Below, one piece after another: positions 9,941-50,948 of a stretch of 64,000 nt of DNA (position 1 is the stretch's first letter; every line of letters starts with the position of its first letter). The translations under genes were made by a program, and so were the position numbers. The DNA lies in contig JACVTC010000013.1 of the NCBI GenBank assembly GCA_016946835.1, forward strand, positions 1,659,501 to 1,723,500. Direction: 5' to 3'. This DNA is from Neocallimastix lanati (nom. inval.) (lineage: Eukaryota > Neocallimastigomycota > Neocallimastigomycetes > Neocallimastigales > Neocallimastigaceae). The notes below the pieces were generated by a model. That model was not told where the DNA came from. It made no database searches and saw only the letters and a program-made list of their open reading frames with translations.

Positions 9941-10330
9941 TTAAATTTTAACATTATCATGTTGAATAGTATCTAATAAAAATTTATGAGCTGAGTGTTT
10001 TCTTATAATAGATTTAGCATCAAAACAAACTTTAGCTCCTGGACGAGAAAGAATTCCATCCTTTAAAGTCCATCCAAGATTCTGACTTGGAACAAATTCT
10101 TTAAATCCATTCGCTTTTAACCATTTATTACATTCAAGGAATAAGGCTTTCGCAAGATCATTGGTACTTGGATTTTTATTGCCTTCACTTTTAATTTTTT
10201 TAAGGACCATATCAGCATTAGGAAATGGAGATTTTGGTTTAAATTCCATATTTTTACAAGATGGTTCTCTTTTGAGACGCATCATCATTGGAATAACATG
10301 ACGATAGTGATGAGTATTGTTAGTATCCAT
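9941..10330 (-). CDS. Small basic protein, cluster family, copy 1
   Basis: 129 aa; I do not recognise the family. Variable N-terminus (1-8), then a conserved core at about 9-109 running from YRHVIP, the basic MMRLKREPSCKN (16-27), SPFPNA (34-39) and NPS..DLAKALFLECNKWLKANG (53-75), to PSQNLGWTLKDG (81-92) and SRPGAKVCFDAKS (95-107). The C-terminal tail of about 20 residues varies. No signal peptide, membrane segment or zinc motif is present. The core reads as a helix (57-74) followed by short strands, so a small nucleic-acid- or protein-binding fold is possible but unproven. Selection is suggested because the frame is GC-richer than its surroundings and seven copies keep it open. The ATG is shared by all copies and is preceded by pure A/T. 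About 1.6 kb upstream (higher coordinates) is duplicated at copies 2 and 3. Confidence 0.75.
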   Translation of the reverse strand: MDTNNTHHYRHVIPMMMRLKREPSCKNMEFKPKSPFPNADMVLKKIKSEGNKNPSTNDLAKALFLECNKWLKANGFKEFVPSQNLGWTLKDGILSRPGAKVCFDAKSIIRKHSAHKFLLDTIQHDNVKI

Positions 10331-11990
10331 TGTTTTAAATTTTCAGCTTAAATTATTTTAAAAAATTTTTAATTATATCTATTATTAATAGTATTTAAAG
10401 GAAATATTTATCAAATATTAAAAAAAAAAGAATATTATAATAATAAAAAAAGTTTTTATTTAAAGAAAAAAATCTTCATTTTTATATTTTTTTTTCATTA
10501 ATCAAAGGATAAAATGCATTTTTATATATTTTTTTTTTTTCATTAATCAAAGTTAAACATATTAATATGATTAAAGTTTATAGAAATATTATATTTTAAT
10601 AAATTAAAATTTAAATTAATTTTTGTCAAATAGAAATTAAAATAATTTGTCAATTTTAAATGATTCGAAATTTTATTAACAAAAATAAAGTTTTTAAAAA
10701 TTATTATTTTTAGTCTCATACATTTTTGAAAATTTAGACAATATAAAAAATTTAAAATTATTTTAAATATAAAAATTACTTTTATATTTTAATTAATTAA
10801 AAAATTGATCTTAATATTAACAGAATAATATATTATATAGATATTTTAATTATAATTAAAAATTATTAAATTGGTATAGATCAAATTATTATCATTATAT
10901 ATTGAGATATTTGATCTTAAAAAAAAAAATCATTCTAAAATAAAATTTAATGTATTAATATAAAAAATTATTATATAATAAAAATTATTGTATTACTAAT
11001 AAAAGTTAAATTTTAATATAGATATAGATGGTTAGAATTAAAAATATAATAGTATTATATATATACAATTAATTTTTATCTATTTAAGTAAAAAATATTT
11101 TAGATAATTGATATATTTTAATGTAATTAAATAAAATTAAATAAAAGAAAATACTAAATAATAATATTATTATATAGAAAATGTTTAACCTTTATTAAAT
11201 ATAACATATATAATATTTATATACTATTAATTATTTTAATGTTTCTTAAAGAAAATTAAAATAATACTAAAGGTATTTTACTACTAAAATAAACGTTTAT
11301 GTAAAAATAAAAATAAATTAACAGTCATAAATAATTTAATTTTATAAATTTATTTAAAATTTATATTAAACTTAGCATTTCTAAAAATAAATTTAATTTT
11401 ACATAAAAATTTAAAATTTAAATATTTATACATATACATATAAAAAAACAAGTAAATATTAAGTATTAAATTTAAATTACCAAAATATAATAAATTATTT
11501 ATATTTTGAGTTAATTACCATTAATGTTAATTTATATTTATAACATCAATAATCATCATGATCATATTTATTTAATGAATTAATATTTATTTTTAGTTAT
11601 TATATACTTTAATTAAAAAAAATAAAGAAATTTAATTTGAAATAAATAAAGAAAAAAATTATATAAAATTAAATATATAATATGTAATAAAATAATTAAT
11701 TACTATTATTCAATCAATAAACATGTTAATCCATTTAAGGAATAAATAGGATTTGAACTTTAAATTGATTGACTGAAAAAAAAATTTTATAATTAATATT
11801 TCCTCAAAAATAATACTCAAATTGATTCAATGTCCATTTACAAAAGAAATTTCTAATTTGTTAGAGAATTCTATTATTTACCAACAAATTATTTATATAA
11901 CTTTCATTATTTCAGACAATAATTATTTTAATTTATTTTAATTATTTTTAAAATGTAATGGAACACTGAAAAAAAATATTAATATTAAAT
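10331..11990. repeat. Upstream segmental-duplication block, copy A
   Basis: The flank above copy 1 recurs above copy 2 (18167-19860) and, shortened, above copy 3 (28458-29600). Landmarks shared in order are: ATTTTTGTCAAATAGAAATT (about 10620), AATGATTCGAAATTTTATTAAC (about 10660), TTAGTCTCATACATTTTTGA (about 10712), and in copies 1 and 2 GGAATAAATAGGATTTGAAC (about 11739) and TTAGAGAATTCTATTATTTA. No other gene lies inside. It shows that the genes were amplified together with their promoters. Confidence 0.7.
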
Positions 11991-12309
11991 ATTATGACAA
12001 TAAAAATTTTTTGATATTATATTTATTATTATTATTATTATTATTTATTAATGCAATTCATTACACAATTCAATACAAAAAGTTCATAAAATTATTTCTA
12101 TAAACTTTTCTTTTCACTTTCTTAATAATCAATTGTTATATTTTTTTGTTTAATTACTATATAATATATAATTGTAAATAAAGTCAATAAAAAATAGGTA
12201 TAATTGAAAATTTTTGATTTAATCAATAATATAAAATAATGGAATATATAAAAGAAAATGAAATTTTTTTAAAAATTATTATATTACTAAGTTTAAATTC
12301 CTTTTAATT
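11991..12309. other. AT-rich spacer within the first duplicated unit
   Basis: Continues as weaker similarity to 19740-19990 (TTATTAATGCAATTCATTACACAATTC and ACTTTTCTTTTCACTTTCTTAAT-type landmarks in both). A short ATT run sits near 12026-12046. No gene. Confidence 0.4.
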
Positions 12310-12850
12310 AATTAATTAATTTAATAATTAATTGATTTAATAATAAAATAAGAATAAAATAATTTATTAAATAAATAATTTAATAATAAAATAATTTTAA
12401 AATAAAACAATTTAATAATAAAATAAGAATAATATAAAATAATAAAATAAGATTAAAATAAAATAATTTAAAATAAAATAATAAAATAAGATTAAAATAA
12501 AATAATTTAATAATAAAATAATAAAATAAGATTAAAATAAAATAATTTAATAATAAAATAAGATTAAAATAAAATGATTTAATAATAAAATAATTTAATA
12601 AAATAAGAATAAAATAAAATAATTTTATAATTAAATAATTTAGTAATAAAATAATTTTAAAATAAAATAATTTAATAATAAAATAAGATTAAAATAAAAT
12701 AATAAAATAAGATTAAAATAAAATAATAAAATAAGATTAAAATAAAATAATTTAATAATAAAATAATTTAATAATAAAATAATTTAATAATAAAATAATT
12801 TAATAATAAAATAATTTTAAAATAAAATGATTTTAAAATAAATGATTTTA
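12310..12850. repeat. AATAA-type irregular tandem array
   Basis: About 540 bases built almost only from the words AATAATAAAATAAGATTAAAA and AATTTAATAATAAAATAATTT in variable order. A short remnant with the same words is at 20345-20420 in the second unit, so the array expanded or shrank after duplication. Confidence 0.7.
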
Positions 12851-12863
12851 GATCTTAATACTA

Positions 12864-12896
<33 letters not shown>

Positions 12897-13399
12897 TGAC
12901 TAAAATTATATTTTTATAAAAAATATATTAAAATAATTAAATTTTTTAAAAAAAATTTTAATTCTAATTTTAAATTTTATTAATATTAATAAAATTTAAA
13001 AAAATTAGAAAAAATAATTAAATATATTTATTTATAATGTAGTTGAAATAGCTAAATAATTTTTTATAGTCATTTTCACTTTTTAATTTTTTTTAAAAAA
13101 ATTACAATCCAAATTTATTAGATTTTTAATTAAAAATAAATAAAGAATTATATTAAATATTAATTGTCCCTAAAAGAAATATTAAAAAAAAAAATAAATA
13201 AAAAATTATGAAAGGGATATATAATTATATTTTTTTTATATTATAAATATTAAAATTTATAATTTTAATATATTAACAAAAACAAAAATATAAAGAATTT
13301 ATTTATAATAATTAAAATAATATTTTATTAAAGTAAAATTGATTGAAATTATATTAAAAAAATATAAAAATTAAAAGATTTCATTTTATATTTCATTAA

Positions 13400-13433
<34 letters not shown>

Positions 13434-14408
13434 AAAACTTTTATAACTTATAAAAATTTGAATTAATTATTTGAAAATATCATATAGTTAGAAGTAGTAG
13501 TAACGATTTACTCAAAGATATTATGGTATTTTTATTTATTATTAAATTGTAATATTTATAAAATTTGTTACATAAATCAAATATTGACAAATTTTTTAAT
13601 TTGTCAATGGATTAATTATAAAATATAATGTTTATTTGTTTTAATGTAATAATATAATTGTTTTTATATAACATTATTAAAATTCATTTTATGATAAATA
13701 TTTATATTATATTTATATAACTTAAAAATATTCATATAAAATATATATTAGATTATTAAGTTTTTTTATTAATAAAAAAAAATTGTTTAAAAAATTAGAA
13801 ATTCTATTTCAAATTAAATTTTTAATAATATAGGTGAAATTTGAAAAAATTACAATTAAATAAAAAATAAATTAATCTATTTATTTATTAGTTAGGTTTG
13901 TCTTAAATCTCATAATTCTTTAATTATTTTCACATCTTATTTTTAAATAACAGTTTAAATTTACTAAAATTTTTATAAAAATATATATATTTATTTTTTT
14001 TATTTTTGATTTTATTTATGTTTTTCTATTAAAAATAATAAAAAAATTACTTATGAATTTCTTCTTTTTACATTTTAATTAATTGATGAATACCATAAAA
14101 ATAATTAATTTTAATAAAAAATTAAAATAATATTAATTACCTTACCTTATTAATATTATAAATTATATATTTAATATAATACAGTATTTTCTTAAAAAGA
14201 TTATAAATAATAGTTAGTAATATTTTATTTACTATTACAAATTTTTTTTTTTTTACTATTAGTTTTATAAATTTTTATAAATTTAAGACTTATATATATA
14301 CAGTATATTTATATACTTAAATATAAGTTTTTTTCTTAAAAAAAAACTTTTTTTAAAGAAATAGAAATTTAGTTTTAATTTTAAATTTTATTAATAATTG
14401 AATTTAAA

Positions 14409-14439
<31 letters not shown>

Positions 14440-15790
14440 TCATTTCATATTTTTTAATAACTAGTAATTTAAATTTATAAAAATTTAAATTAAAAATATT
14501 AAAAAAAATAAAATATATATATATAAAAGAAAAATGAACTTATATATTATTTATTTTTTATTATTGTAAATAAAAGAAAAAAATTATATTTAGTTCATTT
14601 ATATAATTAAAGTTCGTAGTATTACATTAATATATTAAAATTTAAATTAATGTTCATTAATCAAAAAAAAAAAAAAATTTCACCAATCTTGTTAATATGA
14701 TTAATCGGATTCAAAATCAAATCAAAAAAAAAAAAAAATTATATTTAAATCATTATTAGTCTTTGAAAATTTAGACAATATAAATTTTTAAAGATAATTT
14801 TTATAATTCATTAATTATAAAAATGTACTTTGTTTTATCAATAATAAAATAAAATTATCGACCATATATTTAAAGATTATTAATAAGTTATTCAAAAGTA
14901 ATTATCATCATTGTAGATAATTACAAAAATTATTATTAATAAAAAATCATCTAGTAAAAAAATTATTGCATTATTAATAATTTAAATTGTTATAAAAAAA
15001 AAATACAAAATAATATTATAATATGTAAAATATATTGTATTTAAATATAATATAATATATATTTTATTAATAATTATTAATTTAATAATGTTTCATATTG
15101 AGAAATTTCAATTTTGTAAATAATATTTTTATACCAAATTTTATTAATAAAATAGGTAAATGATAAAAAATTAGTTTTAATTTTTTTTAAGTTTTTTTAT
15201 AATTAGTTCAAATTTATTTAAACATAAAATATAAATATTGATTAATTATTATTTATGTTAATTTATTAATATAAAAATAATAATCATTGTTACTACATTT
15301 ATATAAAGAATATATATTTATATATGGTTATTTTAATAAAACTCAACATAAAAAATGAAAAAAAGTTTATGAACATAATTAATTTCAGTTATATTTATAG
15401 TAATATTATTTAATATTATTATTTAATAATAAAATCATATAAAAATAGGATAATGATTTTTTTAATAAGAAAAATAGTTAAGATAACAAAATATTTTATC
15501 TTGTTTTAAGAACTGAATACAATAATAAAAATTAACAATTCTAAAAATAATATATAAACCACTTTATCTTTTAATTAATATAATTATTTAATAAGTAGTA
15601 ATATAATATAAATTAATTATTAGATATTTATTTAATATATATCAAATTTAAAAAAATAATCAACTTTTTTTTTCATTTATAATTAGTAAACTGTATATTT
15701 TTTATATTTTTATTATATATATCTATTCGTAATATAGTAATAAAAACATGTCAATGTTTATTTAAATTTATATTAAAATTCATTTAAATA
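12851..15790. repeat. Duplicated spacer block B
   Basis: Low-complexity A/T sequence whose parts recur at 20440-21760 and 29600-30620. The best landmark is the stretch from TTTCACCAATCTTGTTAATATG (14676) through the TATTATTAATAAAAAATCAT patch (14930), found again near 21155-21420 and 30025-30290. It contains hairpin-repeat copies near 12935-13010 and 14360-14420. No coding frame of note. Confidence 0.55.
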
Positions 15791-15814: not shown

Positions 15815-15960
15815 CAGATGAATATGCAAATACAACTGGATATGTAAATATAACTTGAATATGTAAATACAACAAGATATGTAAACGCAACTGGATATGT
15901 TAACACAACTGGATATGATAACACAAATGGATATGTTAACACAACTGGATAAGCATATAT
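15815..15960. repeat. ACTGGATATG minisatellite
   Basis: Seven or so degenerate units of AACTGGATATGTAAATAC, about 18-20 bases each. The same array, with fewer units, stands at the same place in the other duplicated units (23215-23275, 26500-26590, 31995-32115) and as one or two units at 41040-41080. It is always followed by the conserved AATAGATAGAATATTAATGA. Confidence 0.8.
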
Positions 15961-16530: not shown

Positions 16531-16581
16531 TTTTAAAAAAAAAAAATAATAATAAATTTGAAAATTATTTAATAGAAAAAT

Positions 16582-16626
<45 letters not shown>

Positions 16627-17095: not shown

Positions 17096-17522
17096 TTATA
17101 TACATATTTTTTATTTTAATAAGTAAAAGTAATGAGTAAAATTAAATAATAAATTTAGTGAGTAAAATTAAAGAGTAAAATTAAAGAGTAAAATTAATGA
17201 ATAAAATTCTATTTGCAGTAATATTTATTTTTATTATTATTAATATTATATATATATAGCATTCATTTTAATGTATTTTATATATGTGCATTTATTTTAA
17301 TGAATAAAATTAATGAGTATAATTATATTACAGTAATATTTATTTTTATTATCAATTTATACATATATTTACATATTTTATATAACATTATTTATTTCAC
17401 ATTATTATATATTTATAATATATATATATATATATTATTATTATATTTTCTAGATTCATTATATATTTATATACATGGTATATTGAAACTTCTTTTTTTT
17501 TTTAAAAAAAAAAATAAAAAAA
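17096..17522. other. AT-rich spacer below copy 2
   Basis: Contains degenerate AGTAAAATTAAAG repeats (17150-17210) like the larger array at 27300-27620, and TATA runs. An open frame of 76 codons here is low-complexity I/Y/L only and is not credible as a gene. Confidence 0.5.
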
Positions 17523-17776
17523 CTGTTTAAGAGAAAAAAGGAGATTTAATTCTAATTTATTTCAATTTTAAATTTCATTAATATTTATGAAATTTAAAAA
17601 GAAATTGAAAAGATTAAAAAAAGCATTTTAATTTTATTTATTTATTATATAGTTCACATGGCCCTAAATATAAATTAATTTATTGCAGTTATATTACACA
17701 TTTTTTTTGAATTTTATTTCTCACAGAAACTAAAATCATAATATTTAAAAATAAAAATTATTACTTATTCATCCTT
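17523..17776. repeat. Conserved 3' flank with hairpin repeat, below copy 2
   Basis: The segment holds a near-palindrome around TTTCATTAATATTTATGAAA (about 17573) and then the conserved ATGGCCCTAAATATAAATTA (17659) and TTTCTCACAGAAACTAAAAT (17718). The same order stands below copies 3 (27800-28073) and 4 (33370-33670), at gene-less sites 36010-36200 and 39655-39930, and inverted below copy 5 (43288-43600). It probably contains the 3' UTR and polyadenylation region. Confidence 0.7.
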
Positions 17777-18166
17777 TTATATTTGTCTTTCATTACATTG
17801 AATAGTATTTAATATAGCTTGAGGAACTGAGTGTTTTCTTGTAACAGATTTAGCATCAAAGCAAACTTTAGCTCCTGGACGAGAAAGAATTCCATCCTTT
17901 AAAGTCCATCCAAGATTCTGACTTGGAACAAATTCTTTAAATCCATTCGCTTTTAACCATTTATTACATTCAAGGAATAAAGCTTTCGCAAGATCATGAA
18001 TACTTGGATTTTTATTACCTTCACTTTTAATTTTTTTAAGGACCATATCTGCATTAGGAAATGGAGATTTTGGTTTAAATTCCATATTTTTACAAGATGG
18101 TTCTCTTTTGAGACGCATCATCATTGGAATAACATGACGATAGTGATGAGTATTGTTAGTATCCAT
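17777..18166 (-). CDS. Small basic protein, cluster family, copy 2
   Basis: 129 aa. It matches copy 1 through residue 54 and keeps the whole core, including PSQNLGWTLKDG and SRPGAKVCFDAKS. Differences are IH for TN in the NPS..DLA motif (55-56) and a different tail from residue 108 (VTRKHSVPQAILNTIQCNERQI, in two parts: VTRKHSVPQAI then LNTIQCNERQI). The sharp switch from conserved core to variable tail is seen in every copy. No recognised domain. Both flanks are shared with copies 1 and 3, so this is a segmental duplicate rather than a retroposed copy. The plus-strand frame lying across it at 17996-18226 is a shadow. Confidence 0.75.
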   Translation of the reverse strand: MDTNNTHHYRHVIPMMMRLKREPSCKNMEFKPKSPFPNADMVLKKIKSEGNKNPSIHDLAKALFLECNKWLKANGFKEFVPSQNLGWTLKDGILSRPGAKVCFDAKSVTRKHSVPQAILNTIQCNERQI

Positions 18167-19860
18167 TGTTTTAAAATTTTCAGCTTAAATTATTTTAAAA
18201 AAATTTTTAATTATATCTATTATTAATATTATTTAAAGGAAATATTTATCAAATATTAAAAAAAAAAAGAATATTATAATAATAAAAAAAATTTTTTTCA
18301 AAGAAAAAAATCTTCATTTTTATATTTTTTTTTTCATTAATATAAATCAAAGATAAAATAGTTTATAACATATTAATATGATTAAAGTTTATAGAAATAT
18401 TATATTTTAATAAATTAAAATTTAAATTAATTTTTGTCAAATAGAAATTAAAATAATTTGTCAATTTTAAATGATTCGAAATTTTATTAACAAAAATAAA
18501 GTTTTTAAAAATTATTATTTTTAGTCTCATACATTTTTGAAAATTTAGACAATATAAAAATTTTAAAATTATTTTAAATATAAAAATTACTTTCATATTT
18601 TAATTAATTAAAAATTGATCCTAATATTAACAGAATAATTTATTATATAGATATTTCAATTATAATTAAAATTTATTAAATTGGTATAGATCAAATTCAA
18701 ATTATTATCATTATTGAGATTTGATCTTAATAGCATTATATATATAATTAATTTTTATCTATTTATGAAGAAAATATTTTAGAGAATTTATATATTTTTA
18801 TTAATGTAATTAAAAAAATCAAATAAAAGAAAATACTAAATAATAATATTATTATATAGAAAATATTTTACCTTTATTAAATATAACATATATAATATTT
18901 ATATACTATTAATTATTTTAATGTGTCTTAAAGAAAATTTAAATAATACTAAAGGTATTTTACTACTGAAATGAACGTTCATGTAAAAATAAACATTATA
19001 TACTATAAAAGTAAATAAACAATCATAAATAATTTAATTTTTTAAATTTATTTAAATTTATATTAAACTTAGCATTTCTAAAAATAAATTTAATTTTACA
19101 TAAAAATTTAAAATTTAAATATTTATATATATATATTAAAAAACATGTAAATATTAAGTATTAAATTAAATTATCAAAATATAATAATTTATATTTTGGT
19201 AATTTCAATTATCATTAATGTTAATTTATTTTTATAAATCCATAATCATCATGATCATGATCATATTTATTTAATGAATTTATATTTATTTTTAGTTATT
19301 ATATACTTTAATTAAAAAATAAAGAAATTTAATTTGAAATAAATAAGGAAAAAAATTATATAAAATAAAATATATATTGTAATATGTAATAAAATAATAA
19401 AATAATTAATTACTATTATTCAATCAATAAGCATTTTAATCCATTTAAGGAATAAATAGGATTTGAACTTTAAATTGATTGACTGAAAAAAAAATTTTAT
19501 AATTAATATTTCCTCAAAAATAATACTCAAATTGATTCAATGTCCATTTAAAAAAGAAATTTCTAATTTGTTAGAGAATTCTATTATTTACCAACAAATT
19601 ATTTATATAATTTTCATTATTTCAGACAATAATTATTTTAATTTATTTTAATTATTTTTAAAATGTAATGGATCACTGAAAAAAAATATTAATATAAAAT
19701 ATTATGTCATAAAATTTTTTGATATTATATTTATTATATTTATTATTATTATTATTAATATTTATTAATGCAATTCATTACACAATTCAATACAAAAAGT
19801 TTATAAAATTATTTCTATTAACTTTTCTTTTCACTTTCTTAATGAAATCTTTTATTATAT
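18167..19860. repeat. Upstream segmental-duplication block, copy B
   Basis: Counterpart of 10331-11990, collinear and very similar, with small indels in A/T runs and a deletion around 18728-18735 relative to copy A (10920-11050). No gene inside; an open minus frame of 77 codons (18363-18596) is low-complexity I/K/N/F. Confidence 0.7.
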
Positions 19861-21870
19861 AGTTATAATCACTATATAGTATATAATTGTATATATAGTC
19901 AATAAAAAAATGGGTATATTGAAAATTTATGATATAATAAATAATATAAAAGAATTGAATAAATAAAATAAAATAAACTTTATTTAAAGATATTATATTA
20001 CTAAGTTAAATTAATATATTTTTAAAATCTTTTTTCTTTTTTTTTTTTTTTTTTCTCAATACTAAATTTTCTTTCTTGTTAATAATATAATTTTATTATA
20101 AATAAATGAAAAAAATTTTTAATATGAAATTCCTTTTAATTAATTAATTTATTAAAATTTTATATAAATAAAATTTTAATATACTATTACTAAAATTTAT
20201 TATAAATATTATGACTACATAATTACAAAATTAAAATAACATTTTATCAATGAAAAGACTACAAATAATAGACTACAAATAATAATATTAGATATTTATT
20301 TACAATTATTAATTAAATTTTAAATAATTATTCAATTTTTTGTTTTTTGATATAATAAAACAATTTAAGAATAAAATAATTTAATAATAAAACAATTTAA
20401 TTATAAAATAATTTTAAAATAAATGATTTTAGATCTTAAACTAATTATATAATTCCTTTTTTTTTTCTAAAAATATCTTTTTTATAAAAGATATATTAAA
20501 AAATTTAATTCTAATTTTAAATTTTATTAATATTAATAAAATTTAAAAAAAATTAGAAAAAAAAATTAAATATATTATTTATAATGCAGTTGATATAATC
20601 AAATAATTCTTTATAGTCATTTTTATGTCTTTATTTTTAATTAAAAATTTAATAAATATAGATTGTAATTTTTTTTTTAAAAAAAAAAAAACTAAGAATT
20701 TTATTATGCAATAATAGTCTCTAAATGAAATATTAAAAATAATTAATATTTAAAAAAATAGATTTATGAAAGTGTTATATAATTATATTTTTTTATATTA
20801 TAGAAATATATATATAATTTTAATATATTAACAAAAACAAAAATATAAAGTATTTCATTTTTAATAATTAAAATAATATTTTATTAAATAAAAAATAATA
20901 GTTTTTTCCAATCTTAGTGAAATTGATTGAAATTATATTAAAAAAAAATTAGTATATAAATTTTTTTTAGTCTCAGACTCATTTGAAAATTTAGATAATA
21001 TAAGAAGTAATTTTTTTTTATTATTGTAAAAATTTTTTTATTATTATAAAAAAAAGAAAAAATTATATTTATATTTAGTAAATTTAAATAATTAAAGATC
21101 ATAATATTTCATAAATATATTAAAATTTAAATTAATGTTCATCAAATAAAAAAAATTTCACCAATCTTGCTAATATGAAAAATTAATATGATTCAAAATC
21201 TAAATAAGTATTTAAATCATTATTAATCTTTGTAAATTTAGACAATATAAATTTTAAAAGATAATTTTTATATTTCATTAATTAAAAAAATGAACCTTGT
21301 CTTAACAATAATAAAATAAAATTAGCGACCTTATAATTAAAGATTATTAATACAGATATTCAAAAGTAAATTATCATCATTGTAGATAATTACAAAAATT
21401 ATTATTAATAAAAAATCATCCAGTAAAAAAATTATTGCGTTATTAATAATTTAAATTATTATGAAAAAAAATATATATACTAAATAATATTATAATATAT
21501 TAAATATGTTGTATTTTAATATAATATATATTTTATTAATAATTATTAGTTTAATAATGTTTCATATTGAGAAATTTCAATTATGTACATAATATTTTAA
21601 TACTAAATTTTATTAATAAAATATAGATAAATGATAAAAAATTATTTTTAATTTTTTTAAGTTTTTTTTATAATTATTTCAAATTTATTTAAACATAAAA
21701 TATAAATATTTAATTATTATTCATGTTAATTTATTAATATAAAAATCAGTGTTTAGGATTTTTGTTTAGTAATTAATTTATATAGAAAGAATTTAATAAT
21801 TTTATATTTATTTTTAAATTAAACAATGTATCTATTTCTTAAAATAAAGCTAATAACTATTAATTTCTTC
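19861..21870. other. Duplicated AT-rich spacer, second unit
   Basis: Weakly to clearly collinear with 12000-15300 but shorter: the AATAA array is reduced to 20345-20420. Hairpin-repeat copy at 20500-20565. The TTTCACCAATCTTG landmark is at 21155. No gene seen. Confidence 0.5.
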
Positions 21871-23690
21871 TTTTGATTTTTTCTCAAAATATAAAGACAA
21901 CAAGTATTTTCTAATATATTATTTCACAATTTATTTATATAGTAATTACTTCTAAGCCAAATAATTTTTTATAATATGAAACATACAACTATTTATTATA
22001 TTATAAAAAGAATTTTATAATTATAAGTAGTAATAACGATTTTCCCATAAAAAATAATCAAATGTATTCAATTCCAATTTAATTTTGTTATATAATCTAT
22101 ACAACAAATTATATATATAATTTTTAATGAATATAAATAAATACATAATATTGCATATTATGTAATTAAAAAAATAATGCTTTTGAAAGATTTTTATAAT
22201 TTGTCAATAACATGAATTATAAAATTTAATATTCATTTGCTATTAACTAATAGTATAATTCATTTTTTTAAACTTTTAATTTTTATATTTAAAATATGAA
22301 AAATGATTAATCTTTTCTTATTGAACAAATATTAATACATTTATTTTTAATAATGGTTTGAATAGTTTAAAAATTAATAGATATTTATATAAATTATATA
22401 CAAAAATTATTTTTATTCAATAACCTCTATAATATATTCACTTTTTTAATTAGAATTTCATATCTATATATTAATTATAATTTAATTTATTCAATAAGAT
22501 TTTTTATAAACAGACATAGTACTATATTAATTAGAGATATTATTAAGTATATATATTTAAGTAATTCATATTAATATTTATTTTAATATATTTATGAATT
22601 TATTAATATAATATCTATTTTATAACTACCACAGATTGGATTATTATTCATATTTTTAATTTCATTCATATGTATAATATTATTATTTAATAATAAAATC
22701 ATATAAAAATAGGATAGTGATTTTTTTAATAAGAAAAATGGTAAAGATAATTTTAAATTTATATTTTGTTATAAGAATTGAATAAAATAATAAAAGATAA
22801 TTAACAAGTCTAAAAATAATATATAAACCCCTTTATCTTTCAATTAATAATTAATATAATGACTTAATATGTAGTTTAAATAATAAAAATAGAGTTTTAT
22901 TTATAACAATAATATTTAATTTTAATAAAATTTTACTTAAAAAAATTTTTTTAAAAAATATTTTTATTCTCATTAAAAAAACAAATAAATATATATGAAA
23001 AGATATTTATATTAAAAATATAAAAATATAAAACTAAAATTTAATATTATAACTATAAATAATTTTGTTAATATTATTTTCATAAATATATTTTAATCAA
23101 TATTTATTAATACAATTTATAGTTAAAAAAATATTAATATATATAAATATATAAATATTTGATAATTTTAATTTGTTGACAATTATTCAAAATTATTTAA
23201 TACATCTCATAAGATATGTAAATTAAACTGGATATGAAAATACAACTGGATATGCAAATATAACTGGATATGTATATATAAATAGATAGAATATTAATGA
23301 TAAATTTTGTTAGAAAAAGACAATTTATGACTTAATAAATATGAAAATTTTTATATTTAAATTAAGAACCAATAAAAGTGAACTAATTAACTATAATTCA
23401 AGAAAAGAATATTAAAAAAAAGAGAAAGAATTGCTTTTATGAAAATATAATATTATACTACTAATATTTTTAATTGAATTTATATAATTTTTTATTTATT
23501 TCTTTAAATTTCTTTTTTTTAATTTATACTATTCCTTTTTTTATAATATATTATTCCCTTTTTTTTAATATTAATCCCTTTTTTATAATATTAATCCCTT
23601 TTTTATAATATTAATCCCTTTTTTATAATATTAATACCTTTTTTATAAAATTAATCCTTTTTTTATAATATTATTCCTTTTTTTTTTTAA
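21870..23690. repeat. Inner duplicated segment, left copy
   Basis: This segment recurs at about 24670-26950 (offset roughly 3 kb) and in the third unit at about 30730-32520. Shared landmarks are AAAATATAAAGACAACAAGTA (21887 and 24696), TAATAACGATTTTCCCATAAA (22030 and 24998), TAACTACCACAGATTGGATT-like (22621, 25589 and 31386), the ACTGGATATG minisatellite and the CCTTTTTTATAATATT array. It ends where the retrotransposon relic begins. Confidence 0.65.
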
Positions 23691-27299: not shown

Positions 27300-27620
27300 A
27301 AGTTAATGAGTAAAATTAGAGTAAAATTAAAGAATTAGTTAAAGAATAAAGTTAATGAGTAAAATTCAAGAGTAGTAAAATTCAAGAGTAAAATTCAAAA
27401 GTAAAATTTAAGAAAATAAAAGAGTAAAATTAATGAGTATAATTAATAAAACTAATGAATAAAAAAACTAATGAGAAAAATTAATGAACAAAATTAATGA
27501 ACAAAATTAATGATCAAAATTAAGGAGTAAAATTAAAGAGTAAAATTAAATAGTAAAATTTAAGAAAATAAAAGAGTAAAATTAATGAGTATAATTAATA
27601 AAGTAAAATTAATGAGTAAA
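27300..27620. repeat. AGTAAAATTAATG tandem array
   Basis: About 22 degenerate units of 12-14 bases (AGTAAAATTAATG, AGTAAAATTCAAG, AACAAAATTAATG). Shorter versions lie at 17150-17210 and 32990-33150 in the neighbouring units. Confidence 0.75.
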
Positions 27621-27779
27621 ATTCTATTTACAATAATATTTATTTTTATTATTATCAATATATACATATATATACATATTTTATATAACATTATTTATAT
27701 TACATTATTTTTATATATATATTTTTATTTTTAACTTATATAATATATTTGTGTACATGGTATATTAAATTAAAACTTC

Positions 27780-28073
27780 ATTATTAAAAAAAATTGTTTA
27801 AGAGAAAAAAGTAAATTTAATTCTAATTTATTTCAATTTTAAATTTCATTAATATTAATGAAATTTAAAAATATATTTAATAATTTAAAAAAAAAAAAAG
27901 CATTTCAATTTTATAATTGATTATATAGTTTGTATGGCCCTAAATATAAATTAATTTATTGCAGTTATATTACACATTTTTTTTTCGAATTTCATTTCTC
28001 ACAGAAACTAAAATCATTATATTTAAAAATAAAAATTGTTATTATCGCTAATAAGTTATTCATCCTTTTATAT
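27780..28073. repeat. Conserved 3' flank with hairpin repeat, below copy 3
   Basis: Contains the perfect palindrome TTTCATTAATATTAATGAAA at about 27843, then ATGGCCCTAAATATAAATTA and TTTCTCACAGAAACTAAAAT, in the same order and spacing as below copies 2 and 4. Confidence 0.7.
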
Positions 28074-28457
28074 TTAGCTTTCATTACATTGAACAGTATT
28101 TAATATAGCATGAGGAACTGAGTGTTTTCTTGTAATAGATTTAGCATCAAAACAAACTTTAGCTCCTGGACGAGAAAGAATTCCATCCTTTAAAGTCCAT
28201 CCAAGATTCTGACTTGGAACAAATTCTTTAAATCCATTCGCTTTTAACCATTTATTACATTCAAGGAATAAAGCTTTCGCAAGATCATGAATACTTGGAT
28301 TTTTATTGCCTTCACTTTTAATTTTTTTAAGGACCATATCAGCATTTGGAAATGGAGATTTTGGTTTAAATTCCATATTTTTACAAGATGGTTCTCTTTT
28401 GAGACGCATCATCATTGGAATAACATGACGATAGTGATGAGTATTGTTAGAATCCAT
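28074..28457 (-). CDS. Small basic protein, cluster family, copy 3
   Basis: 127 aa. Differs from copy 2 by Ser3 for Thr3 and by only a few tail residues (SITRKHSVPHAILNTVQCNES), ending two codons earlier. The conserved core is unchanged. It is thus the closest relative of copy 2, consistent with the shared upstream and downstream flanks. No known domain; a cytosolic or nuclear basic protein is the only guess the sequence allows (no signal peptide or hydrophobic segment). The plus-strand frame at 28287-28568 is a shadow of the complementary strand. Confidence 0.75.
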   Translation of the reverse strand: MDSNNTHHYRHVIPMMMRLKREPSCKNMEFKPKSPFPNADMVLKKIKSEGNKNPSIHDLAKALFLECNKWLKANGFKEFVPSQNLGWTLKDGILSRPGAKVCFDAKSITRKHSVPHAILNTVQCNES

Positions 28458-30308
28458 TATTTCAAAATTATAAATTTAAATTTTTTTGAAAAAAAAATTA
28501 ATTATTTAATTATTTTCTTAATAATAGTATTTAAAAGGAAATCTTTATTAAAAATTAAAAATAAATAATATAAAATAAAAGAAAAAAAATTTTTTATTTA
28601 AAGAAAAAAATCTTCATTTTTATATTTTTTTTTCATTAATCAAAGGATAAAATACATTTTTATATATTTTTTTTTTTTTTCATTAATCAAAGTTAAACAT
28701 ATTAATATGATTAAAGTTTATAGAAATATTATATTTTAATAAATTAAAATTTAAATTAATTTTTGTCAAATAGAAATTAAAATAATTTGTCAATTTTAAA
28801 TGATTCGAAATTTTATTAACAAAAATAAAGTTTTTAAAAATTATTATTTTTAGTCTCATACATTTTTGAAAATTTAGACAATAAAAAATTTAAAATTATT
28901 TTAAATATAAAAATTACTTTTATATTTTAATTAATTAAAAAATGGACCCTAATATTATCCGAATAATATAATTTATAGATTTTTTAATTATAATTAAAAA
29001 TTATTAAATTGGTATAGATCAAATTATTATCATTATATATTGAGATTGATCTTTAAGAAAAAAAATCATTCTAAAATAAAATTTATTATATTATTAGTAA
29101 AGTCAAATTTTTATATAGATATAGATGATATTGAATTAAATGAAATAGTATTACGTATATACAATTAATTCTTATCTATTTATGTAGATAATATTTTAGA
29201 GAATTGATATATTTTAATGTAATAAAAAAAATATTAAATAAAAGAAAATACAAAATAATAATATTATGATATAGAAAATGTTTAACCCTTATTCAATATA
29301 ACATATATTATATATATTCACCATTAATTTTATTATTATAATGTTTCTTAAAGAAAATTAAAATAATACCAAAAGTATTTTTATAGTTACAATATTGACA
29401 TTTAAATATTTATTCATATATATACATATATTAAATTGATTCAATGTTCATTTAAAAAAGAAAATTATAAATTGTTATATAATTCAATTATTTACTAACG
29501 AATTATTATTTATATAAATTTTATTATTTCAGACAATTATTTTAATTTATTTTAATTATTTTTAAAAATGTAATAGATCACTAATAAAATATATATATAT
29601 ATATATATACACTATATTTGTATATTAATATTTATGCTTATATATTTATAATTGTATATTAATATTTATATTTTTAAATAAAAAAAAACCTTTTCTAAAG
29701 AAATAGAAATTTAGTTATAATTTTAAATTTTATTAATAATTGAATTTAAAAAACTAAAAATAAAAATAAAAATAAAAATAAATATAAAAATAAAAATTCA
29801 TTTCATATTTTTTAATAACAACCAATTTAAATTTAATAAAATTTAAATTAAAAATATTTTAAAAATTATATTTCGTATTAATAGTCTTTATAAATATACA
29901 ATTAAAGAACAATAAAAAAAATATATATATATATTTATATGTAAAAGAAAAATGAACTTATATAAAGTTCATATTATTATATTAATATATTAAAATTTAA
30001 ATTAATGTTTATCAAATAATAAAAATTTCACCAATCTTGTTAATATGATTAATAGGATTTCAAAATCAAATCAAGTTTTGTATATTTAAATCATTATCTT
30101 TAAAAATTTAAATTATCTAAATTTTCAAAGACTAATAAGTTTTATATTTCATTAATTATAAAAAATGAACCTTGTCTTAACAAGAATAAAATAAAATTAG
30201 CGACCTTATAATTAAAGATTATTAATATAGATATTCAAAAGTAATTATCATAGTAGATAATTACAAAAATTATTATTAATAAAAAATCTTCTAGCATTAT
30301 TAATAATT

Positions 30309-30341
<33 letters not shown>

Positions 30342-30720
30342 CTTAATAATATTATATGAAAAATATGTTGTATTTAAATAATATATATTATATTAATAAT
30401 TATTAATTTAATAATGTTTCATATTAAAAAATTTCAATGATAATACTTTATAATAAATTTTATTAATAAATAGGTTAAATAGGTAAATGATAAAAAATTT
30501 TAATTCTTTTCAAAGTTTCTTATATTTTATTTCAAATTTATTTAAATATATAATATAAATATTTGATTAATTATTATTCATGTTAATTTATTAATATAAA
30601 AATCATAATCATCGTTAGTGTTTAGAATTTTGTTAAATAATTAATTTATATAGAAAGAATTATATAATTTATATTTATTTTTTAGTAAAACAATGTATAT
30701 ATTTCTTAAAATAAAGCTAA
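28458..30720. repeat. Upstream duplication block, copy C (shortened)
   Basis: Collinear with 10331 onward to about 29400, then jumps to the block containing hairpin copy 29705-29765 and the TTTCACCAATCTTG landmark (30025). Relative to the first unit, deletions account for the shorter gene-to-gene spacing. Contains an AAAAAT tandem at 29750-29795 and an A run at 30315-30340. No gene. Confidence 0.6.
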
Positions 30721-32281
30721 TAACTATTTATTTCCTTTCTTAATTTTTTTCAAAATATAAAAGACAACAAGAATTTTCTAATATATTATTTCACAATTTA
30801 TTTTTATACTAATTATTACTAAAACAAATATTTTTTTATAATATGTAACATACAACTATTTATTATTTACTTTTAATTTTATTACATTATCTATCAATAT
30901 ACTTAACACTAAATATATTAAATTATATATTATTTTTATAGATAAATATATTATAAATTTAATTTTAAGAATAAAATTAGTAATACAAAAATATGTCAAG
31001 TCATGCATTTATTCTATATTAATTTGATTTGATTATTTAAAAGAAATTTATAATTATTAAGTAGTAATAACAATTTTCTCATAAAAAATAATCAAATGAA
31101 TTCAATTCCGATTTAAGTGATTAGCCTTTTCTTATTGAACAAATATTAATACATTTATTTTTAATAATGGTTTAAATAATTAAAAATTAATAGATATTTA
31201 TATAAACTATATAAAAATTATTTTTATTCATTAACTTCTATAACATATTCACTTTTTTAATTAGAATTTCAATTCTATTTATTAATTATAATTTAATTTA
31301 TTCAATTATTAATTACATATCTTTAATTCTTATTAATATTTATTTTTATATATTTATGAATTTATTAATATAATGTCTATTTTATAACTACCAAAGATTA
31401 GATTATTAGTCATATTATTATTTAATAATAAAATCATGTAATAATAAGATAATGATTCTTTTAATAATAAAAATGGTTAAGATAATTTAAAATTTTATTT
31501 TTGTTATAAGAACTGAATACATTAATTATTATAATTTAATTAATTCAACTAAAAAACTTGTTCGTGATAAAAATCTTTTTTAATATATCCACATTAATTA
31601 TTTTTAAATTTTTAATTTTTACTAAAAAAAAATTTTTTACTAAAAAAAAAATTTAATATTTAACTATAAATAATTTTAATAATATTATTTATAAATAATA
31701 TTTTAAGCAATATTTATTAATAAAATATTTATAGTTAAAAAAAGATGATATATGTCAATATACAAATATTTTATAATTTAATTATTAGATATTGATTCAA
31801 AATTATTTATATATCTCAAAGTTAAAAAAATAATAGATATATAAACTATTTTTTTTTCAGTTGTAATTATTAAACCGTATATTTTTTATATATTTATTAA
31901 GCATTAACTATTTGTAAAATAGTAAATAGAAAAATATATCAATGTATATTCAAATTTATATTAAAATTCGTTTAAATGGTTAAATTTAAATTAAATACTG
32001 GATATGTATATGTAAATGCATATACATACAGGATATGCAAATACAACTGAATACTGAATATGTAAATATAACTGGATATGTAAATACAACTAGATATGTA
32101 AATATGACTGGCTAAGTATATATAAATAGATAGAATATTAATAATAAATTCTATAAGAAAAAGGCATATGAATATGAAAATTTTTATTTTTCAATCAAGA
32201 ACCAATGAAAGTAACTATAATTTAAGAAAAGAAAATTAAAAAAAAACAAAAAAACAAAAAAACAAAACAAAACCAAAAAAA

Positions 32282-32386: not shown

Positions 32387-32432
<46 letters not shown>

Positions 32433-36200: not shown

Positions 36201-36779
<579 letters not shown>

Positions 36780-45001: not shown

Positions 45002-45577
45002 GAAATGTAATATCATATGTGATATTCCAACATTAAATAAATTTATATTTTCATATTTTATCATTAAAACTTCATTAATTTAAATTATCATATTATCATT
45101 CGTAAAATATATATATATATATATTTATAATAATAAATATATTATTTTTATTTTTACATAAAAATAAATCATCTCATAATAAATGTTTGATTATTTTTTT
45201 TTATATTTTCTATTTTAATAATTCTATTATTATTTCTTATTAAATACAAAATCTATAATATATTTTTCAAGAGTCAGAATGTGATTACTGAATCCTTCTT
45301 ATACAGAAAACATAAAAATACTGTATCATTAAATCATTTCTGTACTTTGACGGAAATTAAATATATATATAAATTATATAGCCCAACCTATATAAATTAT
45401 TATTTAATGAATATAATTTCTATATAATTTATCATCCTCTGAGTCGTCCCTTCTAATTGTTTCTACATTGCATATTTTATTTCAAATATAAATAAAAAAA
45501 AACTGCATAATCCAATATTTTAAAAATTAAAAAAGAATAAGAATAAATAACCTTTTTTTTTTTAATGATTAATGAAT
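43746..45577. other. Spacer with one unexplained GC-richer island
   Basis: Mostly A/T with AAT arrays (44840-45000). The island at about 44050-44230 (TAAGGGCAATAAGGCCTCTC and onward) stands out in composition but has no open frame, no poly-A/T tail and no clear tRNA boxes. A second milder patch (45260-45480) lies just below copy 6 and contains GAGTCGTCCC, echoed by ATCGTCCC below copy 7. Confidence 0.4.
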
Positions 45578-45970
45578 TTATATTTGAGCACCATCATGTT
45601 TAATAGTTTCAGATAAAATTCGATGAGCCGATTGCTGTCTTGAAATAGACTTTGCAAAAAAACAAACTTTAGCTCCTGGTCGAGAAATAACTCCATCCTT
45701 TAAAGTCCATCCAAGATTTTGACTTGGAATAAATTCTTTAAATCCATTCGCTTTCAACCATTTATTACATTCCACAAATAAAGCATTGGCAAGATCTTGT
45801 GCACTTGGATTATTATTACCTTCACTTTTAATTTTATGAAGAACCATTTCAGCATTTGGAAATGGTGATTGTGGTTTAAAAGCCATATTTTTACATGATG
45901 GTTCTCTCTTGAGACGCATCATAGTTGGAATAGGATGACGATATTGACGAGTAGCAGTTGTAGTTGACAT
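45578..45970 (-). CDS. Small basic protein, cluster family, copy 6
   Basis: 130 aa, starting MSTTTATRQYRHPIP. Core keeps MMRLKREPSCKNMAF, SPFPNAEMVL, NPSAQDLANALFVECNKW and PSQNLGWTLKDG. It differs from its near-twin at 50.6 kb at three residues: Thr4/Ala4, Pro13/Ala13, and Phe in CFFAKS where every other copy has Asp (CFDAKS). The loss of this otherwise invariant Asp may mean the copy is starting to decay or has a changed role. Nine nucleotide differences to copy 7 by eye, yet the flanks are unrelated on both sides. No known domain. Confidence 0.75.
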   Translation of the reverse strand: MSTTTATRQYRHPIPTMMRLKREPSCKNMAFKPQSPFPNAEMVLHKIKSEGNNNPSAQDLANALFVECNKWLKANGFKEFIPSQNLGWTLKDGVISRPGAKVCFFAKSISRQQSAHRILSETIKHDGAQI

Positions 45971-46733
45971 TTTTTTTATTATTAGTAATATTGTTTTTAA
46001 ATTATTAATTTTAAAACTATTAATTACTTTCTATAATTTAGAAATTCTTATTTTTTATTTTTTTTTTCTAATCTTTTTAAATTAAACTTATTTTAAAGAA
46101 TTATTTAATATTATAATTTTTAATTAATCAGCAATGATTAATATTTTTTTAAAAGAAGAATTACCCTGTTTTTATATTTTTTTTTTTTTTAAAAAGATTC
46201 CTTCTATAATGATAAATATGATTAATAAAAAATATAATAAATTTTTAATATTTTTTCTATATAGATAATGTAAACAATTATATTTTGATAATATATTAAA
46301 ATATATTGTTATCAATATCATTTTAATATAATTTAAACAAATTATAATTAGCTATTTAAATTATACCCTTATCAAAAATTTTATATATATGTTATCAGTT
46401 ATTTATATTTTAATTATATTATAATTATATAAAAAAAAATGTATTATTTATAGATATAGTAATCAATTGAAATTTAGGGATTAATCTAAAATTTGAGAAA
46501 AATCTTCATCAATATGTAAAACAATCCTTAAAAATAAAATATATATATATAGTCAAAACTCAAAACTAATCAGTAGATTAAGCTATTTAATATATAAAGT
46601 AATAATAAATATAGTCTATATAATTAATATTATGTATATATCATGAATGTTATAATGATAAGTATTAAATACTAAATATTTAAATTAATAATTATATATC
46701 AAAATTATGAATTTTATATTATAATAAATAATA

Positions 46734-46766: not shown

Positions 46767-47390
46767 AATTAAATATTTAAGTTAACATTAAATATAAATA
46801 TAATATTAAGTTAAATTTGTTATTATTTATAAGTATAGAATAATCATTATCTTCTATATAATATTTTTTTTTATTTGTTTGTTTGTTTTTTAAATTATCT
46901 TCACTCTATTTGTATAACTAATAAAATATAATGAAAAACAAAGTTTTATAATTCTTCTTTTCAATAATTATAATTTGCAATTAAAAAGTTTATAGTAGTT
47001 GAATTTTTATTAATTAAAAATATCTATTATAGATAATTTTTTTAAATAGCTTTAACTAATATATAAAATTAAAAAAGTATAAATTATTTCTAATTAATAA
47101 AATAGTAAAGTAAAATTAATATAGGTATAAATCAAAGATTTATTTAATTATTAAAATATATAATATAATAAAAAAAAATATAAATATAATTATAAATATA
47201 AATATAAATATAAATATAAATAAAAATAAAAAAAATAATTTTTCTTCTAATGTTATAAATTAATAATAAAAATAATATATATATATACACTTTATTTATA
47301 ATAATAAATAAATATTTATATATATATTTAAATATGACAATTTTTAATATAATTTATATTACTATAAAATATTCATAAATAAATTGTTAT
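45971..47390. other. AT-rich spacer
   Basis: Presumed upstream region of copy 6, then featureless A/T with a TA run at 46740-46763 and an ATAAAT run at 47180-47225. No gene. Confidence 0.4.
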
Positions 47391-47590
47391 CCTCTATTCG
47401 ATTTAGTATCAAAATAGGTTTTAGCTCCTGAACAAAATCATTTGAAGTTCATTTAATTCATTAAATATAAAATAAATTGTTTTAAAACTTAAAAAGATAA
47501 AAAAAAAATAAAATAATTTATTACTCGCTTAAAATATTTAGTCTTCAACTTGGAGCAATAAATTTTTTAAATTTAATATATAAAAAAATT
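47385..47590 (-). pseudogene. Fragment of a small-protein gene
   Basis: Two pieces in the right order on the minus strand: CTATTCGATTTAGTATCAAAATAGGTTTTAGCTCCTG-like sequence (47394-47430, equal to the AKS...PGAKV region) with TTTGAAGTTCAT (47442), and TCTTCAACTTGGAGCAATAAATTTTTTAAAT-like sequence (47541-47572, the PSQNLG region), separated by about 90 bases of A/T insertion. The remaining coding region is gone. Confidence 0.6.
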
Positions 47591-48701: not shown

Positions 48702-49158
48702 GCCATGTTGGTCCAGTCGGTTAGGACGATACAGGTCACTGTAGAGGGCGGGGTTCGAATCCTCGGCATGGCACCAAATAATCGGATGAGGTTTCTATCC
48801 TGGGATATCATGAGACCACACGTGATGTCCATAAGGCTTTCCCTCAGATGATTATTTCACCCAACCCTGATACTACGCTTTGAATTGAAGCATAGACCTT
48901 GATGATTGTAAAATTTCCAATCGCCAATGATTACACCCACTAGGGAGGAGTTAATGGTTCCGTTCTGATGCTCGTGGTCATTAGAGATATATGTAGGAAC
49001 GTTAGGAATGCATCTCCGGGCAGTGTGTAACGACGATTGAGAGCGGCGAAGCTGATACAGTATGCCAATAACTCATCACCTTACAGTTAATTAATAACTG
49101 TATGGCCATATGGGAGATGGGTACCCATATGTGCAAGTCTATGTTTTTTTTTTTTTTT
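48702..49158 (+). mobile_element. SINE-like element with tRNA-derived head
   Basis: The first 75 bases (48702-48776) fold as a tRNA: 7-bp acceptor stem GCCATGT/GCATGGC, D stem GTCC/GGAC, T arm CGGGG-TTCGAAT-CCTCG, then A and an encoded CCA. The anticodon stem TACAG/CTGTA closes a loop of only four bases (GTCA), so it is unlikely to be a decoding tRNA. A body of about 365 bases without an open frame follows; its last part contains the hairpin CATATGGG/CCCATATG (49107-49131). It ends in a T15 run (49144-49158), which could be a Pol III terminator or part of the target. The last 150 bases of the body recur at 53.87 kb. This is the GC-richest non-coding island in the window. A tRNA-class SINE is the best reading; a tRNA gene beside an unrelated RNA gene is the alternative. 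Confidence 0.75.
48709..48762 (+). promoter_or_regulatory. Internal Pol III promoter (A and B boxes) of the SINE-like element
   Basis: A box TGGTCCAGTCGG at 48709-48720 and B box GGTTCGAATCC at 48752-48762 match the consensus (TRGYNNARNNGG; GGTTCRANNCC) at tRNA spacing. Both look intact, so the element may still be transcribable. Confidence 0.8.
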
Positions 49159-50555
49159 AATTTTTTTTTTAATATAAAAAAATACCAAAAGATTAAAAAA
49201 AAATTTTAATTAATAATGAATAAATGAAAAATGAAGGATCAAAGTATTAAAAAAAAAGTAATAAATTAAATTTCCATATAAGGTAATAATTAATTTGAAA
49301 AAAGTTATTAAAAAAAAAAAAAAAAAAAAAGTTTTTTAATAATAATAATAGTAATTATTTATACTTTTTTTGTCAAAAACTTAAAAAATAAAAAAAATAT
49401 ATAAAAAAAGATAAAATTTTTTTTAAAATTTATAAAAAAAAAAAAAAAAAAAAAAGAATTATAAGATGTAAAAAATGAAAATTTAAATTATCTTACCTTA
49501 CTCTATATTATATATAAACTTTACATTTTTTTTTTAGATAAATTATAACCTATCACCTTTGTAATTTTATAATATAAAAATATAAATAATATAATAATTA
49601 AAATAACATGATAGTAATTATAAAAATAATTCAATATAAATTTAAATAGATAATAATAGATTATAATATATTTATTTATTTATACTTGATTATATAATCT
49701 ATTTATTAAAATTATTTATAACTATATATTCTATACCACAATAAAATATATATATATATATATATACGTTAGATAAGAAATATTAATAATATATATTAGG
49801 AAAGAATTATATAAATATATTATTAGAAATTATATAGTATATTATACATACATTACAGAAATTATATATTCATCGTTTTTTAAAATAATTATACTATTTC
49901 AAATAATAATATTACTCTATAACTAAATAAAACTATTATGATTCTATATGTTATCACATTTCTTATAAATACATATAATAAAAGATTATAATTATAATAA
50001 TTTTATTTACTAATATTTATATATTTTTATGAATATAATAAATTTTATAAATTTAATTTCAATGGAATACTTAAATACTAAATATTACAATATCCATAAA
50101 ACATCATACTTTAAAAAAACACACACACACACACACACAATTAGTGCAAATTTTATACTATTTAATTTTAATTCTATATTACTACATTTTTTATTTCTAC
50201 TTTTAAAAAATATAATATATACATAAATATATATAGAAAGAAAGAAAGAAAGAAAGAAAATATTAAATACATATTTACAAAATATAAAATATATTAATAA
50301 AAATTATAAATTTACAAAATAAAAAAGTACATTTAAAAATTTTCGATCATTTATAAATCGAATATATATATCAAATATATATATGAAAAAAAAAAATAGT
50401 GTTTTCATATTTCATTATTATCCATTGATAAAGTTTCCTCATATCAATCGTCCCCCAATGAATCTCATTGAGATATAACACTTCATATCAAATCCTTCAA
50501 ATGAATATAAATATAAAAATAATAATAATATATTTATACATTTTTCATTCATAAT
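49159..50555. other. AT-rich spacer
   Basis: No gene. Holds A runs (49310-49330, 49435-49455), a TA run (49744-49766), a CA/AC dinucleotide run (50119-50139) and a GAAA run (50235-50259). The plus frame at 50029-50226 crosses the dinucleotide run and is not credible. A GC-richer patch at 50440-50500 (CCCCCAATGAATCTCATTGAG) lies directly below copy 7, probably its 3' UTR. Confidence 0.45.
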
Positions 50556-50948
50556 CTATATCTGAGCACCATCATGTTTAATAGTTTCAGATAAAATTCG
50601 ATGAGCCGATTGCTGTCTTGAAATAGACTTTGCATCAAAACAAACTTTAGCTCCTGGTCGAGAAATAACTCCATCCTTTAAAGTCCATCCAAGATTTTGA
50701 CTTGGAATAAATTCTTTAAATCCATTCGCTTTCAACCATTTATTACATTCCACAAATAAAGCATTGGCAAGATCTTGTGCACTTGGATTATTATTACCTT
50801 CACTTTTAATTTTATGAAGAACCATTTCAGCATTTGGAAATGGTGATTGTGGTTTAAAAGCCATATTTTTACATGACGGTTCTCTCTTGAGACGCATCAT
50901 AGTTGGAATAGCATGACGATATTGACGAGTAGCAGTAGCAGTAGACAT
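50556..50948 (-). CDS. Small basic protein, cluster family, copy 7
   Basis: 130 aa, starting MSTATATRQYRHAIP, with the complete consensus core including VCFDAKS. Nearly identical to the 45.6 kb copy inside the frame (three residue changes, TAG instead of TAA stop) while the 5' flank, a long T run, and the 3' flank do not align. The abrupt loss of similarity at both ends of the reading frame points to gene conversion limited to the frame, or to insertion of a copied transcript; no poly-A tail supports the second. It is the last family copy found in the window. Function unknown; no signal peptide, membrane segment or known motif. Confidence 0.75.
   Translation of the reverse strand: MSTATATRQYRHAIPTMMRLKREPSCKNMAFKPQSPFPNAEMVLHKIKSEGNNNPSAQDLANALFVECNKWLKANGFKEFIPSQNLGWTLKDGVISRPGAKVCFDAKSISRQQSAHRILSETIKHDGAQI

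What the first reader, a model, noticed from the sequence alone, without database searches (positions are those of the whole stretch)
9941..50948. Unrecognised small basic protein family amplified as seven open copies and four or more relics
Seven frames of 123-130 codons share a core (YRHVIP, LKREPSCK, SPFPNA, PSQNLGWTLKDG, SRPGAKV, DAKS) with variable first 8 and last 20 residues. I know no domain with this pattern. Relics at 6.6, 8.3, 39.9 and 47.4 kb show birth and death in place. This is the strongest candidate for an undescribed system: a lineage-specific cluster under protein-level constraint in otherwise unconstrained DNA.
Basis: partly seen in the sequence, partly recalled or inferred. 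Interest (0 to 1): 0.82.

Follow-up and report, generated by a model that had tools for sequence, protein, structure and literature searches.

The report
Orphan protein family of anaerobic fungi
Seven similar small genes in a gene-poor, very AT-rich stretch of a gut-fungus genome belong to a protein family found so far only in anaerobic gut fungi; selection keeps the protein intact and neighbouring copies seem to overwrite one another, but what it does is not known.

Summary
The seven frames exist as described (9941-50948, 123-130 codons). Two of the four named relics are clear (6.5-6.9 and 8.3-8.7 kb), one is probable (47.4 kb), and one (39.9 kb) is not above control. The genome (199 Mb, very probably Neocallimastix lanati) holds a second cluster of seven intact copies on another contig, so 14 were found. 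Named relatives are 'hypothetical proteins' of Anaeromyces, Piromyces and Neocallimastix. No convincing match was found in Pfam, NCBIfam, PHROGs, PDB, or the viral, phage and prokaryotic collections searched. They behave as protein genes: codon-model omega is 0.116 over 14 copies, 0.070 for residues 9-108, with a looser C-terminal tail. Units of several kb have been duplicated. Two neighbouring pairs are 97.5% and 98.2% identical inside the frame with flanks that barely align or do not, which points to gene conversion. Function is not shown; my committed guess is a small basic nucleic-acid-binding protein. This is an undescribed clade-restricted orphan family with a familiar mode of evolution, not a demonstrated new system.

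The parts
9941..10330 (-). copy A1, 129 aa
17777..18166 (-). copy A2, 129 aa
28074..28457 (-). copy A3, 127 aa
33671..34042 (-). copy A4, 123 aa
42895..43287 (+). copy A5, 130 aa, the only one on the plus strand
45578..45970 (-). copy A6, 130 aa; 97.5% identical to A7 from 45575 to 45977 only
50556..50948 (-). copy A7, 130 aa
6539..6895 (-). relic, 70.3% DNA identity to A7, stops inside
8300..8679 (-). relic, 70.6% DNA identity to A7, many stops
47328..47485 (-). probable relic of the 3' half of a copy
   Evidence: 49.7 bits against a highest control value of 42.5 in 12
9962..15292 (.). duplicated segment with A1 (pieces match 17798-21746 and 28089-30617 at 80-96%)
17297..21999 (.). duplicated segment with A2
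27518..30866 (.). duplicated segment with A3

Best explanation
SHOWN: a family of 14.0-15.3 kDa basic proteins (calculated pI 9.6-10.2) encoded by uninterrupted frames in two clusters of seven. In the collections searched it was found only in anaerobic gut fungi. It is kept by strong purifying selection, strongest on residues about 9-108. Segments carrying copies have been duplicated and some copies have decayed. STRONGLY INFERRED: neighbouring copies overwrite one another by gene conversion that runs to about the edge of the coding frame, and the C-terminal tail escapes most of the constraint. INFERRED: the protein works inside the cell as a nucleic-acid-binding protein, most likely a small DNA-binding or chromatin-type regulator suited to an extremely AT-rich genome. 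A positively charged N-terminal arm and a helix-helix-beta core would contact nucleic acid, and the variable tail would differ between copies in partner or timing. The 0.4 is for the whole statement including nucleic-acid binding; the family and selection part alone I hold at about 0.95 and conversion at about 0.85.
For: GY+F3X4 codon model: omega 0.116 for 14 of 14 copies (lnL -2206.9; -2357.6 with omega fixed at 1), 0.070 for residues 9-108, 0.253 for 109-130. 14 intact copies in two clusters. Named relatives in Anaeromyces robustus, Piromyces finnis, Piromyces sp. E2 and Neocallimastix lanati (22 proteins; 23). A6/A7 dS 0.049 and B3/B4 dS 0.045 although their 150-base flanks align at or near shuffled level, whereas A1/A2 at dS 0.092 keep 94% identity over 150 bases upstream; edges. 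Net charge +8 to +14 and highest 19-residue mean hydropathy 0.53 over 14 copies; pI. Model with helices 40-49 and 57-74 and three short strands, pLDDT 66, pTM 0.61. Its Foldseek list contains several DNA-binding proteins (Cre, Rex, TTHA1657, a TetR-type), but none is significant (all E >= 2).
Against: No significant fold or family match. The model is of middling confidence: blocks of residues 81-110 average 48-60, and the stretch after helix 2 that could be a recognition helix is drawn as coil, so a helix-turn-helix is not shown. A basic charge does not make a DNA-binding protein. Codon use is middling: 0.50 of codons are those preferred in a neighbouring gene that I take for AHCY, against 0.85 in that gene and 0.73 in the esterase, which speaks against a bulk chromatin protein. 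No expression data.
Confidence: 0.4

Rival explanations
1. A small adaptor or accessory protein that binds another protein or enters the hydrogenosome; the basic Ser/Thr/Arg-rich start is a docking or targeting peptide and nucleic acid is not involved.
For: The N-terminus is basic and rich in S, T, A and R in most copies; fold unassigned; middling codon use.
Against: Residues 11-30 are conserved at 0.82-0.85 mean column identity, more than I would expect of a cleaved targeting peptide (general knowledge). No targeting predictor was available.
Confidence: 0.33
2. The frame is a mobile cassette: copies spread by insertion of the coding frame, which explains identity that stops at the frame edges.
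For: Sharp edges at or near the frame in A6/A7 and B3/B4; unrelated flanks.
Against: No shared termini or target duplications seen by eye in the printed flanks. B3/B4 identity begins inside the frame, 16 and 7 bases from the two start codons. All 14 copies sit in two clusters, and A1-A3 are parts of long duplicated segments. No recombinase is encoded in the frame.
Confidence: 0.07
3. A selfish family, such as a spore-killing or drive element, kept in arrays that convert one another.
For: Clade-restricted, clustered, converting, with diverging tails.
Against: Core omega 0.070, copies in three genera and two Piromyces ortholog-like pairs speak for stable service; no hydrophobic segment.
Confidence: 0.07
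4. Chance open frames or decaying DNA without function.
For: Relics exist beside the copies; no expression evidence was available.
Against: omega 0.116, about 151 log-likelihood units better than omega 1; 14 open frames in DNA where relics carry stops; homologues in other genera.
Confidence: 0.01

Closest known systems
Hypothetical proteins of anaerobic gut fungi: H8356DRAFT_1418312, _545945 and _1026595 (Neocallimastix lanati), BCR36DRAFT_582481 and _582482 (Piromyces finnis), PIROE2DRAFT_15719 and _64117 (Piromyces sp. E2), BCR32DRAFT_325674 (Anaeromyces robustus)
   Same: Homologues 71-75% identical to copy A3 over 93-97% of it. The three N. lanati models equal copies B3, B7 and B1 of the second cluster letter for letter (B3).
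   Different: No function is given for them. Copies A1-A4 and A5 fall in clades apart from the one that holds these eight (for the six rows in the tree; the N. lanati three enter there as B1, B3, B7).
HMG-box proteins (PF00505)
   Same: By eye, KPxTPFPNAxM...NPS..dLa..Lf....W recalls the first half of an HMG box.
   Different: Profile-profile score 8.1, reached by 182 of 200 column-shuffled controls; reversed profile 13.8. Not a relative on this evidence.
Winged-helix DNA-binding proteins
   Same: Basic, helix-helix-strand-strand order in a middling model.
   Different: No significant structural match; likeness only, recalled.

Membership tests
The orphan family itself (anaerobic gut fungi) | homology over nearly the whole of about 127-135 residues | tested here: met
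   7 window copies align end to end with the family, 7 more in the second cluster. Of 22 database proteins 20 cover 91-100% of the query; P0021 covers 76% and P0022 67%. P0001 lacks five internal residues, P0005 has a longer start.
HMG box (PF00505) | significant match to the family profile | tested here: not met
   no Pfam match to HMG box at E <= 10 for 7 single copies or 28 members; hhalign against 20 HMG boxes of this genome below most shuffled controls
HMG box (PF00505) | three-helix L-shaped fold | tested here: inconclusive
Winged-helix DNA-binding domain | helix-turn-helix followed by a beta wing | tested here: inconclusive
   two helices and a hairpin, but no recognition helix in the model and weak confidence there; no significant match
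Winged-helix DNA-binding domain | binds DNA | not testable with these tools
   needs a binding assay
Any Pfam, NCBIfam or PHROGs family | match above curated cut-off or E <= 0.001 | tested here: not met
   best: Pfam E 0.037 (Trim66 B-box, 10 of 28 members), PHROGs E 0.032 (1 of 29) and 0.064 (phrog_22737, 19 of 29), NCBIfam none of 28

The most novel reading that the evidence does not exclude
An undescribed small DNA-binding fold that arose on or before the stem of the anaerobic gut fungi and serves their extremely AT-rich genomes, for instance as an AT-tract chromatin or stage-specific regulator. Its copies are held in gene-poor arrays where conversion, limited to coding islands, keeps the binding core uniform while tails diversify.
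Probability: 0.18. Interest if true: 0.7.

Novelty: new member of a known kind. Interest (0 to 1): 0.4.

Why it matters
It is an orphan gene family shared by at least three genera of a clade: strongly constrained, multi-copy, and without a detected relative elsewhere. It also offers a clean natural case of what looks like gene conversion confined to small coding islands in DNA of roughly 10% GC. If the protein proves to bind DNA, it is a lead on how these fungi manage such AT-rich genomes.
Full report
Observation. All seven frames exist at the stated places and lengths. A pattern for part of the core hits exactly these seven and occurs in none of 100 shuffles. Between 2 and 60 kb the GC content is 7.7-19.0% in 2-kb steps. 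The only other ATG frames of 90 codons or more there are three low-complexity frames over a simple-repeat tract at 36.2-36.8 kb and one 93-codon frame partly antisense to A3. Of the four relics named, 6539-6895 and 8300-8679 are clear, 47.33-47.49 kb is probable, and 39.9 kb is not above control (6 of 14 copies as queries, 12 simulated sequences).

Host and extent. The window is C35:1659501-1723500 of a genome of 199,045,447 bases in 762 contigs. Neocallimastix lanati is reported as 200.97 Mb in 970 contigs (PMC8561657, passages seen). Three N. lanati gene models equal copies of the second cluster, so the host is very probably N. lanati. Searches with two family members each gave 21 matches: seven intact copies and two relics on C35, seven intact copies on C665 (2208384-2237787, all plus strand; frames), and five matches on the short contig C420. 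C420 repeats part of C665 at 99.2% identity. Around copies B1-B4 the two differ in 16 alignment columns, 14 of them length differences; the C420 version of B4 is read in two frames. I count C420 as redundant, so 14 intact loci. The tool warns that such counts are lower bounds.

Relatives. A search of 5.8 billion proteins gave 22 and a profile search 23, of which only the 7,990 candidates sharing most words were scored. Nine carry names, from Anaeromyces robustus, Piromyces finnis, Piromyces sp. E2 and N. lanati, all 'hypothetical protein'. The other thirteen of the 22 have no name, three of them being proteins the window itself encodes. Pfam, NCBIfam and PHROGs give nothing convincing (best E 0.032), PDB sequences nothing below E 0.07, and viral, prokaryotic and phage collections no confirmed relative. 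The crown of the anaerobic gut fungi is put at 66 +/- 10 million years (PMC6712302, passages seen). A family shared by three genera is probably about as old; that step is inference.

Selection. Uncorrected Nei-Gojobori dN/dS runs from 0.13 to 1.24 over the 42 within-cluster pairs; the one pair above 1 is A1/A3 (dS 0.055). A codon model that allows for base composition gives omega 0.116 for 14 copies, 0.184 for cluster A, 0.093 for cluster B, 0.070 for residues 9-108 and 0.253 for 109-130. Fixing omega at 1 costs about 151 log-likelihood units. In A1-A4 the tail has omega 3.3, not distinguishable from 1 (-168.97 against -170.50, kappa held at 2.7 in the latter), while their residues 9-108 have omega 0.083. 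Third-position GC is 0.10-0.21. Codon choice agrees at 0.50 with that preferred in a neighbouring gene that I take, from its sequence and from memory, for AHCY (0.85 itself; esterase 0.73), which suggests modest expression.

How the cluster evolves. A1, A2 and A3 sit in duplicated segments of several kilobases, 80-96% identical piece by piece. The A1 match to A2 and A3 stops about 21 bases before the end of the A1 frame, and A1's tail and downstream DNA differ from theirs (downstream identity to A2 0.61, score 32 against 19 +/- 5 shuffled). A6 and A7 are 97.5% identical from 7 bases before the start to 3 bases past the stop. B3 and B4 are 98.2% identical from 16 (B3) or 7 (B4) bases inside the frame to 5 bases past the stop. 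The other plus-strand matches among the 15 best listed in the surrounding 4-5 kb are 22-92 bases long. Flanks of 150 bases score at or below shuffled level for three of four sides; downstream of A6/A7 there is a slight excess (22 against 13 +/- 5). At a somewhat higher dS (0.092) the A1/A2 upstream flank is still 94% identical, so plain decay of flanks does not explain the sharp edges. Gene conversion running to the end of homology does. B3 and B4 are also found on C420. In the protein tree (28 rows, midpoint root for drawing) the four Piromyces copies form one clade (97/92) holding two E2/finnis pairs (86/63 and 96/87). A1-A4 with P0002 (100/97) and A5 with P0004 (93/83) stand apart from the clade with A6, A7 and all B copies (99/96). 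P0002 has the body of A4 and the tail of A3, a natural recombinant or a chimeric assembly.

Comparison of the two clusters. Of 415 matches of 150 bases or more between 104 kb around the window and 70 kb around the second cluster, those between 2 and 60 kb of the window are of four kinds: the seven frames (each against all seven B copies), the 6.6-kb relic, one 74% match at 4265-4557 to a place outside cluster B, and low-complexity tracts. From 61 kb on there are pieces of a reverse-transcriptase element (one search showed only the first 80 rows of this comparison).

Mechanism. The proteins are 14.0-15.3 kDa with net charge +8 to +14. In 11 of 14 copies (not A1-A3) most of the charge lies in residues 1-30 and 91-120, and no stretch could span a membrane. 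The better model (pLDDT 66, pTM 0.61) has helices 40-49 and 57-74, three short strands at 89-103 and a C-terminal helix; the first had pLDDT 61. The HMG-box likeness that I saw by eye is rejected by the profile test. The commitment to a nucleic-acid-binding protein rests on charge, size, compact make-up and absence of membrane segments; it is inference, at about 0.4.

Verdict. The finding is real: an undescribed, strongly constrained, clade-restricted orphan family. Its mode of evolution is a known kind and its function is open, so moderate interest.

Noticed in passing
window 590-2029 (-): 479-aa protein with an esterase Ig-like N-terminal domain (PF18435) and a prolyl-oligopeptidase-type hydrolase match (PF00326), probably an esterase.
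   Followed up: partly
window 60168-62746: Reverse-transcriptase frame (PF00078, 60995-62746 minus) and a 94.7% direct duplicate pair 60168-60715 / 60930-61472; pieces of it also match the region of the second cluster.
   Followed up: no
window 15822-17208, 23213-23825, 26499-27623, 32008-33150: Similar minisatellite types (18-base ATATGTAAA..., about 20-base CCTTTTTTATAATATT..., 13-base TTAATGAGTAAAA) recur on the 3' side of A2, A3 and A4, as parts of the duplicated segments.
   Followed up: partly
window 36160-36760: Simple-repeat tract that creates poly-Asn, poly-Ile and poly-Leu frames on both strands.
   Followed up: no
window 4265-4557: A 304-column, 74% identical match to a place on C665 outside the second cluster, GC 0.19: perhaps a dispersed repeat.
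   Followed up: no
C665:2234299-2234691 (copy B6) and protein P0022: Public model H8356DRAFT_1349400 looks like B6 with internal stretches missing, as if introns had been called inside an open frame.
   Followed up: no
C665:2215138-2220848: Frames of what looks, by eye, like a copia-type retroelement lie between copies B2 and B3 (no family search run).
   Followed up: no
proteins P0001 and P0002: P0001 equals A3 without five residues (LKANG); P0002 has the body of A4 and the tail of A3: natural variants or assembly chimeras.
   Followed up: no
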